A stretch of DNA of 64,000 bases from an uncultured Rhodocyclaceae bacterium. Its GTDB lineage: Bacteria > Pseudomonadota > Gammaproteobacteria > Burkholderiales > Rhodocyclaceae. Where the stretch lies: assembly GCA_907163075.1 (NCBI GenBank), contig CAJQTY010000001.1, positions 372,001 to 436,000 of the forward strand, in the 5' to 3' direction. Below the pieces are notes generated by a model. It worked only from the letters and a program-made list of their open reading frames with translations, had not been told where the DNA came from and did no database searches. Shown piece by piece: positions 5,797 through 58,860 of the stretch; within the stretch, counting starts at the first letter, position 1; every line of letters starts with the position of its first letter. The translations under genes and the position numbers were made by a program.

Positions 5797-6639
5797 TTAC
5801 GCTCCCAACAACCTGGCAAAACCCAACAACAGCAACAGCAACAACCAGAGCAACAAGGCGCGCCAGGCCAAGCCTACCGCACTTTGCATGAAATCGACAT
5901 CTGCTTCATCGCCGATGCCTATCTCGGCACGCTCGGCAAGCACCCCGACCGCGGCCTTCGGCGCACCCAGCGCACCGGCACCGCTGACGAGGAGAATGCC
6001 AATTCCATTTCCCGGCTGACCCGCCGGACCATTCGGCCATTTGTCGGCCTGCTTGCGCCAGCAATAAATCGCGTCTTCGAAATTGCCAACAATGGCGAAT
6101 CCGGCCGCAGTAAGCCGCAAGGGTAGCTAGTCTATAACAGCAAAAGCCTGTTGTGAAAAATTACCGAAATATCCGGCCTCGGCGTCGGTGCGCTTTCCCC
6201 GAACATCGGCAAAAGAAGCCGCCGCGCGGCGACGGACGGCACCACACGTCCCCCGCAGGATGGCGATTTCGGACGACGATAAACCGTCGGTTGGACGTCC
6301 ACGCCATTCGCGCGCGTGCGGCAGATCGTCAATGCGCGGAGCGAATCCGATGTCTTTGTAATATTGGCTGAAGTGCCGGAATCCCAGGGTCAGATAACGC
6401 ATCGTGACGTTCCACAACCAGGCCAATAGCGGGCTGAGCGCGTGCAGCATGCCAGCGGCAAGAAAGAGTCCGCCAACCGCAATCACCCCGACGATCATGC
6501 CGTGGCTGCGCGAACTCGCGTGCAAGAAGCCTTCAAGAGTTCCGGCGAGCCATGAAGACGGCTCGAGAACAGCCTCGCAGTAAGGCGAGGGCCGAATCTT
6601 TTCAATCAACAAAACGGCGAACAGGGGAAAAAGTGCCAT
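5797..6639 (-). pseudogene. CobD/CbiB-family membrane protein, broken by an amber codon and internal loss
   Basis: Two fragments of one gene lie in the same frame. The first runs from ATG 6639 (MALFPLFAVLL, then MRYLTLGFRHFSQYYKDI) to a TAG at 6129-6127. The second continues directly after that TAG with LPLRLTAAGFAIVGNFEDAI and ends with a DEADVDFMQSAVGL motif and a leucine-rich final helix. Intact betaproteobacterial relatives carry a tryptophan before LPLRLTA, so TGG to TAG is the likely lesion. The middle (after LSSSEIA, about 6290) no longer matches the family and is about 30 residues short, suggesting an additional deletion with compensating frameshifts. CbiB-like proteins act in adenosylcobinamide formation, while this AmpE/CobD-like branch is of uncertain function. 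It borders a mobile-element patch. Confidence 0.72.
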
Positions 6640-6681: not shown

Positions 6682-7081
6682 CTAGTGTCCGAAAAATTCA
6701 AGATACCATATTTTATGCAAACTCGCTGAACGGCCCAGCGTTGCCCAGGGCAATCGCATGAATGTCGCCAGAATGGCCGGTGGCCGGTTGACCCAAGGCT
6801 GGTCATTCCGGCGTATGCCGGAATCCAGGTTTGCGGAGCACGAACTGGGTCCCGGCTTGCGCCGGAACGACAAGCTTGAGGATGAAACGAAGCTTGCGGA
6901 ACCTCCCTAAAATGATTATGGCATTCATGCGATTGCCCTGCAGCGTTGCCAGCCAGTGAGCATCCCCGACGTCGGTTTTCCTGCCGGAGACCTTCTTGAC
7001 CTGCCGTGCATTGACCACCTTGGCACGAACGCCAACGGCTTCCAGCGCCGCGTGCGGACTTTTCCAGTCAATGTCTTGCCA
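6682..7081 (-). pseudogene. IS110-family transposase fragment split by a short repeat element
   Basis: Minus-strand residues VVNARQVKKVSGRKTDVGDA followed by HWLATL match the conserved N-terminal DEDD transposase region of IS110-type elements. The frame is interrupted at 6940 by the 195-bp element and resumes on its far side with about 17 residues (GRSASLHKI...). Upstream, similarity fades near 7081. No C-terminal serine domain is present, so the remnant is non-functional. Its split allows the insertion of the 195-bp repeat to be recognised. Confidence 0.7.
6746..6940. mobile_element. 195-bp short repeat element, family B copy 1 (MITE-like)
   Basis: The element begins CAGGGCAATCGCATGAATG and ends with the exact inverse, CATTCATGCGATTGCCCTG. 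It is flanked on both sides by the perfect 10-bp direct repeat CAGCGTTGCC (6736-6745 and 6941-6950). The interior carries a CATTCCGGCG...CCGGAATCC palindrome. A second copy of the same length lies at 40809-41003. It is too short to encode a transposase, so it must be mobilised in trans. Confidence 0.85.
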
Positions 7082-7440
7082 TGAACCTTGTCCAGCGCGA
7101 GCGGGGCAGCCCATTCTGCCCATTCCCTGCGACCCCGCTTGACGCTCCAAGCTGCTGTTGGTCTATGCGTGTCCTGCCATCGTGCTCTTCGATCAAGGCG
7201 CCGGCGGCGATCTGCCCCAATGCGATTCCCGGCCTGGCGGCAACGGCAACGTCCTCTGGAACGCCGGCCGTCTCGGTGACCGTCGGCCGCATCACTCCTC
7301 GACAGTCGTCTTTCAGTCCCGTGCTTCATTCTGCCCGATACGGTACTTCGCACAGTTGACCAGCATAGTGCCCAAATTCCGCCCGATTCTCCGTCACGCC
7401 CTCGTGCCGACATGCATAGGCGGCTTGACAGCAGGAACTC

Positions 7441-7600: not shown

Positions 7601-8290
7601 TCACGTTGAAACACGAGGATACAAGCGGGCGAGTTTGGCTCGGGCATTCTGGGTGGTGAATCGCCATTTGACGGGAGTAGCCTTGGCATTGCGTTCGCGG
7701 ACATTGGCATCAACCTCTCGGCGCAGGGACGCTTCATCGGCAATGCGCTGCGACAGGTACATGTTGGACAGGACTGCCAATTCAATTTCGGCGATGTTGA
7801 GCCAACTGCCATGCTTGGGCGTGTAATGGAACTCCAGCTTGCGCGCGATGGCACGGGCTTCTTCGGGCGGGAAGGCCTCATAAAGCGAGGCCAGTTTGTG
7901 CGTGTTCAGATTGTCGAGGACGACACGAATGACTTCGGCCGCCGGATAGCACTGGACGATATGCCGCATGCAGTGGGCAAACTCAACCTTGGTTCGGCGT
8001 TCCATGACCAGCACCTCCCGCCAGCCTCGTTTGGGTTCGCAGATCATCATCAAGTCCCGGACGCCATTACGCTGGTACTCGGTATCCTGTCGGGCCGGCG
8101 TACCGGGTTGCGGCGGGATGGCTTCGCGAACTTCGCCAATCAGTTGCTTCGGGCTCTCGTCGAAGCAGACCATCGGGCGCGCCGGATCGTAGAGCGCTTC
8201 ATACAGGTCAAGAACGTCTTCCATCGGCGCGACATAGTCCGCGCCGACCTCGGGGATACACCATTCCCGCACTTGCCAGGGTTTCAAGGT
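7601..8290 (-). CDS. IS630 transposase, C-terminal (DDE catalytic) part
   Basis: This frame encodes the DDE/RNase-H-like domain: MVCFDESPKQLIGE (first Asp), RVVLDNLNTH (second Asp) and the FHYTPKHGSWLNIAEIEL region with the final Glu. It is a typical IS630 catalytic half of about 228 residues. It overlaps the N-terminal frame and lies +1 relative to it. The frames meet at an A7 run (plus-strand T7 near 8291-8297), so the full protein would need slippage or the copy is frameshifted. An isolated TTG at 8287 is the only early start and is unconvincing. Confidence 0.8.
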   Translation of the reverse strand, partial: TLKPWQVREWCIPEVGADYVAPMEDVLDLYEALYDPARPMVCFDESPKQLIGEVREAIPPQPGTPARQDTEYQRNGVRDLMMICEPKRGWREVLVMERRTKVEFAHCMRHIVQCYPAAEVIRVVLDNLNTHKLASLYEAFPPEEARAIARKLEFHYTPKHGSWLNIAEIELAVLSNMYLSQRIADEASLRREVDANVRERNAKATPVKWRFTTQNARAKLARLYPRVST

Positions 8291-8726
8291 GTTTTTTTAA
8301 GAGCCGGCGAACCGTTTCATGGCTGAACGATTCAACATAGCCCAACTGCACCACCTTGTCGGCCAGGAGCCGCAATGTCCAATGATCGTGCCCTTCCGGC
8401 GCCGGCGTACAAGCCACGGCGATCACATGGGCGCACTGTTTGTCGGTCAGCTTCGCCGCCGCGCCCGGCCGGGGACGGTCATGCAAGGCCGCTTCAACCC
8501 CTTCCTCGACGCAGCGTTGCCGGGTATTGCCGACCATGGTGGCAGAAATTGCCAGGGCGTCCATGATCTCCGCATCCTTGCAGCCGGCCGCCGCCTTCAA
8601 CAGAATCCGCGCTCGCGTCTGCTTGCGCGCCGCGCTCTTCCCATTGTGCAGCAAGGCTTCCAGCAGTTCCACTTCATCTTCCGTCAGCGTGACTCGATAC
8701 TTGATGGCCGGCATGTCGCTCTCCAA
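8208..8726 (-). CDS. IS630 transposase, N-terminal (helix-turn-helix) part
   Basis: The 172-residue frame encodes paired helix-turn-helix motifs (LLHNGKSAARKQTRARILLK and GCKDAEIMDALAISATMVGN) followed by the linker region DRPRPGAAAKLTDKQ typical of IS630 transposases. The family signal ends at LLKKHLE over an A7 run, after which the frame reads unrelated residues to its stop at 8208. The homology continues in the overlapping +1 frame. A better start may be ATG 8711 (MPAIKYRVTL). Confidence 0.8.
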   Translation of the reverse strand: MESDMPAIKYRVTLTEDEVELLEALLHNGKSAARKQTRARILLKAAAGCKDAEIMDALAISATMVGNTRQRCVEEGVEAALHDRPRPGAAAKLTDKQCAHVIAVACTPAPEGHDHWTLRLLADKVVQLGYVESFSHETVRRLLKKHLETLASAGMVYPRGRRGLCRADGRRS

Positions 8727-40723: not shown

Positions 40724-40808
40724 GGGGAACAAACCAAAATAGCTGAAAAATCAGGCTGTCGATGATAGCACAGTGAACTCGCCGGCTCGCCGAACAGGAA
40801 CCCGCGCG

Positions 40809-41003
40809 CAGGGCAATCGCATGAATGTGACTGGAATGACCATTGGCCGGCTGATTCAAGCCTCGTCATTCCGGCGCGGGCCGGAATCCAGGTTTGCGGA
40901 GCACGCTCTGCGTCCCGGCGTGCGCCGGGGCGACAACTTTGGGGGTCGAATGAAGCTTGCGGAGCTTCAGCCAAATGACTCCGGGATTCATGCGATTGCC
41001 CTG
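40809..41003. mobile_element. 195-bp short repeat element, family B copy 2
   Basis: It has the same length, terminal CAGGGCAATCGCATGAATG (with the right end CATGCGATTGCCCTG) and interior TCATTCCGGCG...CCGGAATCC, GTTTGCGGAGCACG and GAAGCTTGCGGA as the copy at 6746. It is flanked by imperfect 16-bp direct repeats beginning AACAGGAAC (40793-40808 and 41004-41019, 13 of 16 identical). It lies about ten bases before the -35 box of the gcv promoter. Confidence 0.85.
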
Positions 41004-41012
41004 AACAGGAAC

Positions 41013-41042: not shown

Positions 41043-41045
41043 TCA

Positions 41046-41252
41046 GGCGCGAATGGGAGAGCGTGGGAGGCGTGCAAGAGCGAAGACCCACCGCCGAAGG
41101 CGCAATCCACCCGGAAACGCTCAGGCAAAAGGACCGTTTGTGCAATGAACTCTGGAGAGCGGCGCTGTGCATGTGGCGCCCACCGATGGGGCAACGTGGC
41201 CGGAAGCGACAGATCGGCCGCGACAATCTCTCAGGTATCAAGGACAGGGGGG
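41046..41252 (+). promoter_or_regulatory. Tandem glycine riboswitch (two aptamers)
   Basis: Aptamer 1 has GGGAGAGCGTGGGAGG, CACCGCCGAAGGCGCAA and CTCAGGCAAAAGGACC. Aptamer 2 has CTCTGGAGAGCGGCG, CACCGATGGGGCAA and TCTCAGGTATCAAGGACAG. These are the hallmark conserved boxes of the gcvT element. A terminator-like hairpin follows, so glycine binding probably permits read-through into the glycine cleavage genes. Confidence 0.96.
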
Positions 41253-58483: not shown

Positions 58484-58672
58484 ATGAATGCTACCATCCC
58501 GGCGCTGGTGGTATTCGTCAGCGACGAGGACGCCTTCATCATGAGCCTGGCATAAAACATCGCCCGTCGCCAATGCCGACCGCTGGAAATCCTCGCCGGC
58601 ATCAAGCAGCTGCGCGACAAGGGATACGTACCGTATGGAGAATGCGACGGCTGTCGGTGGCGAGTGAACTGA
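58484..58672 (+). pseudogene. ParB-like partition protein fragment
   Basis: In one frame the plus strand reads MNATIPALVVFVSDEDAFIM, SLA, then a TAA, and continues in frame with NIARRQCRPLEILAGIKQLR, DKGY. The ENIARRxxRPLE signature of ParB-domain proteins is expected where TAA now replaces GAA. The rest is lost at a junction with an ISAs1 remnant. This is an inferred, decayed plasmid or mobile-island partition gene. Confidence 0.6.
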
Positions 58673-58860
58673 TCACGTAGCGTTTCTCCGTCTCGATCTT
58701 GCCGCCGCGCTCGCGCGTCGATCCGATGCAGGCGACTGACGCGAGCTTCGACCAGCGAGTCTTCAAACAGAGCAGCTTGAGCCAATCGAGTTCGCCAACA
58801 GCGGTACAACGTCTGGCCTCGGTCCGGCCGTGCCCCTTGTCCAAGTTTTCATGCACTGAC
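58630..58860 (-). pseudogene. ISAs1-family transposase fragment
   Basis: Minus-strand residues HENLDKGHGRTEARRCTAVG, DLDW-like ELDWLKLL, then GSTRERGGKIETEKRYVISS and LATDSRRILH match the C-terminal half of ISAs1 transposases. Both flanking parts are missing. Confidence 0.7.

What the first reader, a model, noticed from the sequence alone, without database searches (positions are those of the whole stretch)
6736..6950. 195-bp non-autonomous element with 19-bp inverted ends and a perfect 10-bp target duplication
The termini CAGGGCAATCGCATGAATG are exact inverses, and CAGCGTTGCC is repeated directly on both sides, inside an IS110 remnant whose frame resumes across it. A second copy of identical length sits at 40809-41003. 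Together this shows a moving, trans-mobilised element. The transposase family is unknown; 10-bp duplications are not typical of IS110 or IS630.
Basis: seen in the sequence. Interest (0 to 1): 0.72.

Follow-up and report, generated by a model that had tools for sequence, protein, structure and literature searches.

The report
MITE mobilised by ISAs1-family transposase
The 195-base element is one of a family of small gene-less jumping sequences whose ends match a known kind of bacterial insertion sequence (ISAs1 family), so it is real and well explained but an ordinary kind of element.

Summary
The element is real. Window 6746-6940 has perfect 19-bp inverted ends and a perfect 10-bp target duplication; 20 shuffled windows held nothing like it. 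A second 195-bp copy lies at 40809-41003 on other flanks. The 5.2-Mb genome gives at least 46 matches (40 of 114 candidates scored), including 13 near-full-length copies with both ends. Across 16 paired elements of this genome, flank identity peaks at exactly 10 bp (0.71, against 0.19-0.34 at 21 other lengths), and again in 38 elements from other genomes (0.62).

The open question, the transposase family, is answered: ISAs1. The same ends bound a damaged 1065-bp ISAs1 copy in this genome, a 1271-bp Sulfuritalea element with a full-length transposase, and three plasmid ISs, one ISPa60-like; the last four have 10/10 duplications. Published ISAs1 traits fit (passage).

One detail fails: IS110 homology lies on one side only, so its frame does not "resume".

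Verdict: a new MITE family of a known kind. Its less ordinary feature is a palindromic core that also occurs without the MITE ends.

The parts
6746..6940 (+). MITE copy 1 (195 bp; longest ORF wholly inside it 50 aa)
6746..6764 (+). left 19-bp terminal inverted repeat
   Evidence: exact
6922..6940 (-). right 19-bp terminal inverted repeat
   Evidence: exact
6736..6745 (.). 10-bp target-site duplication, left copy CAGCGTTGCC
6941..6950 (.). 10-bp target-site duplication, right copy CAGCGTTGCC
6802..6871 (+). 70-bp core: inverted pair of short palindromes, also found in the genus without the MITE ends
6941..7218 (-). IS110 transposase remnant; DNA homology to relatives begins at the duplication
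40809..41003 (+). MITE copy 2 (195 bp, 81% identical to copy 1), upstream of a tandem glycine riboswitch
40793..40801 (.). AACAGGAAC, offset direct repeat left of copy 2 (7 bases from the end of the element)
41004..41012 (.). AACAGGAAC, direct repeat abutting the right end of copy 2

Best explanation
A miniature inverted-repeat transposable element (MITE) that has the ends of an ISAs1-family insertion sequence of an ISPa60-like group. An ISAs1 transposase (DDE type), supplied in trans by a full-length IS, recognises the 19-bp ends, moves the 195-bp unit and joins it to a staggered target cut, whose repair leaves a 10-bp duplication. Shown here: shared ends, a 10-bp duplication across many copies, dispersed copies, full-length ISs with the same ends and duplication. 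Inferred: that this transposase did the moving, and that in this genome the family is now stranded or nearly so, because the only close ISAs1 copy found is damaged and no two of 13 compared MITE copies are more than 94% identical.
For: Ends: shared with the 1065-bp ISAs1 element of the same genome (G000:C3:746387-747451; 2 and 1 mismatches), duplication 9/10; with the 1271-bp Sulfuritalea element L137 (0 and 2 mismatches, duplication 10/10); with plasmid ISs of 1274, 1244 and 1228 bp (0-3 mismatches, all 10/10), the last annotated ISPa60-like. Family: NF033564 ISAs1, E 2e-92 for the own copy, 9e-118 for L137. Duplication: identity at length 10 is 0.713 in 16 own-genome elements and 0.616 in 38 others; at the 21 other lengths 0.19-0.38; 8/10 or better in 10 of 16 and 20 of 38, against 0 of 240 and 3 of 1406 cross-copy controls. 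Site without insert: the site of the IS is uninterrupted in relative G021. A paper gives ISAs1 14-22-bp ends starting CAGGG and a 10-bp direct repeat (PMC11946415, passage).
Against: In this genome 4 of 16 elements score 5/10 or less for the abutting 10-bp duplication, and in other genomes 18 of 38 score 6/10 or less (erosion, rearrangement or false pairing of ends). Two own copies (40809 copy and L004) have offset repeats instead. The only close ISAs1 copy found in the genome lacks an internal stretch and a matching C-terminal part, so no working source was found there. No clean empty site was obtained for window copy 1; at the gcvT, L004 and L014 sites relatives lack the insert but are too diverged to show the exact target. 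Transposition was not observed.
Confidence: 0.94

Rival explanations
1. The copies are segmental duplicates or recombination products rather than transposition products.
For: The left flank of copy 1 and the right flank of another copy (L007) are neighbours in G018, G012, G007 and G013, so some rearrangement happened near these copies.
Against: Flanks differ between copies; L001 (10/10) and L007 (8/10, read from the flanks) each keep matching duplications, which exchange between copies would destroy; cross-copy controls reach 8/10 in 0 of 240.
Confidence: 0.02
2. The mover is an IS110 or IS630 element, both of which lie close by.
For: An IS110 remnant adjoins copy 1 and an IS630-family transposase gene lies about 660 bp to its right.
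Against: The elements found here with these ends and a transposase gene that was identified are ISAs1. That IS630 duplicates TA and IS110 usually makes no duplication is recalled, not tested.
Confidence: 0.01
3. The unit is kept by a cellular function of its palindromic core (RNA hairpin, terminator or protein site) and the ISAs1 ends are incidental.
For: Strong predicted fold (z -7.7); the core also occurs without the ends.
Against: Five other multi-member clusters of small elements with the same ends lack this core, so the ends alone account for mobility; a hairpin follows from inverted ends.
Confidence: 0.03

Closest known systems
ISAs1-family insertion sequences, ISPa60-like group
   Same: Near-identical 19-bp ends beginning CAGGGCAATCGCATGAA, 10-bp duplication
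   Different: The MITE has no transposase gene, and its interior falls in a separate cluster from the ISs
Other bacterial MITEs, e.g. MITEPye1 of Paracoccus yeei (IS1182-related; PMC11578231, passages)
   Same: Small, gene-less, inverted ends of an IS, direct repeats, strong secondary structure
   Different: Ends of a different IS family, different host
Neisserial dRS3/NIME repeats (PMC3898611, passages)
   Same: The core is a pair of short palindromes of similar layout around a spacer
   Different: Published dRS3 pattern is ATTCCC(N8)GGGAAT; the first palindrome here reads ATTCCG(N8)CGGAAT; no link shown

Membership tests
MITE (non-autonomous, IS-derived) | Short, no transposase gene, inverted ends | tested here: met
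   195 bp, 19/19 ends; longest ORF wholly inside is 50 aa, 6758-6910
MITE (non-autonomous, IS-derived) | Many dispersed copies with target duplications | tested here: met
   at least 46 matches, 13 near-full-length with both ends, 10-bp signal
MITE (non-autonomous, IS-derived) | Ends shared with an autonomous IS | tested here: met
MITE (non-autonomous, IS-derived) | Transposition in trans | not testable with these tools
   needs a bench assay
ISAs1 family (the partner elements) | ISAs1 transposase above the curated cut-off | tested here: met
   NF033564: own damaged copy 309.5 bits; L137 393, L329 396.3, L331 407.3; cut-off 70. L330 was not scanned; it is annotated ISAs1
ISAs1 family (the partner elements) | 14-22-bp ends starting CAGGG and 10-bp direct repeat (as stated in PMC11946415) | tested here: met
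   L137 and three plasmid ISs 10/10, own damaged copy 9/10
dRS3 / NIME (core only) | ATTCCC(N8)GGGAAT | tested here: not met
   first palindrome of the window core reads ATTCCG(N8)CGGAAT (pattern from the passage)
IS110 interruption | IS110 homology on both sides of the insert | tested here: not met

The most novel reading that the evidence does not exclude
The MITE is a chimera: ISAs1 ends that captured a dispersed palindromic repeat which spreads by a second, separate process, so one 195-bp unit would join two mobile repeat systems and the ISAs1 transposase would spread the palindrome as cargo. Support: all 19 members of this cluster carry the core motif (at most 3 of 16 positions off), the other 46 paired elements do not (4 or more off); of 29 core places examined in this genome 14 have both ends, 5 one, 10 neither; many same-genus matches share the boundaries 57-126 of the MITE. 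Not excluded otherwise: core-only copies may be eroded MITEs.
Probability: 0.35. Interest if true: 0.45.

Novelty: new member of a known kind. Interest (0 to 1): 0.28.

Why it matters
It assigns a transposase family to an otherwise anonymous repeat and shows that the same ISAs1 ends bound at least six dissimilar clusters of small elements. That gives a natural set for asking what an ISAs1 transposase needs in order to move DNA in trans. For annotation it explains dozens of repeats in this genome. As a kind of element it is ordinary.

Tried and rejected
IS110 interruption: rejected, homology on one side only. Segmental duplication or exchange between copies L001 and L007: not supported, because both keep matching duplications; why their flanks are neighbours in four relatives stays unexplained. 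Plasmid collection searched with the MITE DNA: no match. Promoter scan around copy 2 found no site above its threshold. Papers: an ISAs1-derived MITE was not seen in the listings nor in the passages read; ISfinder could not be searched, so no absence from print is claimed. Searches listed no paper; one search listed one paper naming ISPa60, not opened; some searches gave listings of which only some papers were opened.

Rows dropped and limits: from the own-genome pairs, L023 (151 bp, ends 4 and 5 mismatches) and the 4181-bp pairing in L062 were left out, two long pairings in L142 and one in L152 were left out, and L081 was counted as own. Pairs were found after the count and were not added: of 11 new pairs with a readable left flank (L206 counted once, both its pairings score low; L204 has no left flank; L231 repeats L081), 7 score 10/10, 1 scores 8/10 and 3 score 4/10 or less. 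One search classified 29 of the 42 matches (those with fetched loci; one of the rest is the reverse-strand repeat of a counted place); its rule was ends with at most 6 of 19 mismatches, the first percentile of random windows being 7. The first classification, ignored strand and was replaced. Searches scored only part of their first-look candidates (40 of 114; at most 20 per genome; 40 of 97), so their counts are lower bounds.

Full report
Observation. The window shows at 6746-6940 a 195-bp unit with exact 19-bp inverted ends and the direct repeat CAGCGTTGCC on both sides. Allowing three mismatches, the end sequence occurs four times in the window, at the ends of the two copies, against 0.03 expected. 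A scan for perfect inverted repeats of 8 bp or more, at most 400 bp apart and flanked by perfect 10-bp direct repeats, finds this element only, and nothing in 20 shuffles. The copy at 40809-41003 has the same length and 81% identity to the first.

Copies. The genome (5,200,415 bases, four contigs) gives 46 matches at E up to 0.001, with 40 of 114 candidates scored, so this is a lower bound. Thirteen near-full-length copies (190-195 bp) have both ends with at most 5 mismatches; they are 69-94% identical to each other, so no compared pair looks very recent. Copy 1 and L002 (94%) both have perfect duplications. A 345-bp copy (L011) appears to carry an internal insertion, and a 135-bp pair (L062) has a 10/10 duplication.

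Target duplication. For duplication lengths 1 to 22, the identity of abutting flanks in 16 elements of this genome (15 MITE-like and one IS) is 0.19-0.34 except at 10, where it is 0.713. In 38 elements of other genomes it is 0.21-0.38 except at 10, where it is 0.616. Scores of at least 8/10 occur in 10 of 16 and 20 of 38, against 0 of 240 and 3 of 1406 left-right pairings of different copies. This is the signature of transposition with a 10-bp stagger. Against it: 4 of 16 own elements score 5/10 or less and 18 of 38 others 6/10 or less. Two of the four own ones (40809 copy and L004) show 8-9-bp repeats set off from the left end by a few bases, unexplained, and a third (L011) has an abutting 8-bp repeat.

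Partner. A pair of ends 1065 bp apart in the same genome encloses a transposase frame of the ISAs1 family (332 aa as listed, running through one end; NF033564, E 2e-92). Compared with the 379-aa protein of L137 it lacks about 40 residues inside and its C-terminal part aligns poorly; the element is 206 bp shorter. It is the only close ISAs1 copy found in the genome; the other matches are partial and weaker. Full-length partners exist elsewhere: L137 (Sulfuritalea sp. MAG, 1271 bp) and plasmid ISs of Hydrogenophilus (1274 bp), Azotobacter (1244 bp) and Pseudomonas (1228 bp, annotated ISPa60-like), all four with 10/10 duplications. L137 and two of the three plasmid transposases were scanned and score far above the ISAs1 cut-off; the third is annotated ISAs1. 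A paper states that ISAs1 has 14-22-bp ends starting CAGGG and a 10-bp direct repeat (PMC11946415, passage).

Range. Grouping 65 paired elements by their interiors gives the window's cluster (19: 15 in this genome, 4 in two same-genus genomes), an IS cluster (10, including shortened derivatives), five further clusters of 2-11 members and eight single elements. Different interiors under the same ends are what trans-mobilisation predicts.

Sites without insert. Eight joined sites were searched in 28 same-genus genomes. The ISAs1 site beside a tRNA gene is continuous in G021, with the target present once in diverged form (7 of 10 bases). At the gcvT, L004 (leuA by my reading) and L014 sites, five, three and five relatives give a match that spans the junction without an insert of this size, but the junctions themselves are too diverged to show the exact target, and in closer alignment several break into pieces. 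For window copy 1, G018 keeps the left flank up to the target region without an insert, but its right side is a different gene. The other three sites (L007, L008, L012) gave no spanning match among the rows listed.

IS110 claim. The IS110 match is a 44-residue stretch below the Pfam and NCBIfam cut-offs. Joining the flanks does not extend it: alignments to two IS110 relatives start at window 6735 and run to the right only, while the left flank matches the region downstream of the gene at 6127-6639 in relatives. The insertion lies at the boundary of the remnant.

Core. Positions 57-126 of the MITE are an inverted pair of short palindromes. In this genome 14 of 29 examined core places have both MITE ends, 5 one end, 10 neither; in relatives many matches cover only 57-126. 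The core resembles, but does not meet, the published dRS3 pattern (passage). Either it is a separate repeat captured as cargo or core-only copies are eroded MITEs. The predicted RNA fold is strong (z -7.73), as expected for inverted ends plus palindromes.

Mechanism. Most likely a trans-acting ISAs1 transposase moves the unit through its 19-bp ends with a 10-bp target stagger. Ends, stagger and partner are shown; the act of transposition is inferred. Organism: unnamed; its GcvP protein is 87% identical (over residues 196-959) to that of a Propionivibrio MAG and 82% to Accumulibacter necessarius, so most likely of the Rhodocyclales. Gene names such as gcvT, leuA and GcvP are my reading of translations and, for gcvT, of the riboswitch ahead of it.

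Noticed in passing
window 41044-41249: Tandem glycine riboswitch ahead of a gcvT-like gene; MITE copy 2 ends 40 bp upstream of it.
   Followed up: partly
window 7601-8726, - strand: IS630-family transposase in two overlapping frames (HTH part and DDE part), about 660 bp right of copy 1.
   Followed up: no
window 58623-58856, - strand: Fragment resembling a more distant ISAs1 transposase (41% identity to part of the L137 protein).
   Followed up: no
L001 left flank and L007 right flank; L282, L283, L299, L300: The left flank of MITE copy 1 and the right flank of copy L007, about 268 kb apart here, are neighbours in four same-genus genomes; both copies keep matching duplications, so simple exchange between them does not explain it.
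   Followed up: partly
L086 / L281 (G021 C171): A related 195-bp element follows the same left flank as own copy L007, possibly the same old insertion.
   Followed up: partly
L010 and L004 left junctions: Two copies have 8-9-bp direct repeats separated from the left end by a few G+C-rich bases instead of an abutting 10-bp duplication.
   Followed up: partly
L329 (plasmid pTH1): The Hydrogenophilus ISAs1 copy lies beside a gene annotated as a Piwi-domain protein.
   Followed up: no
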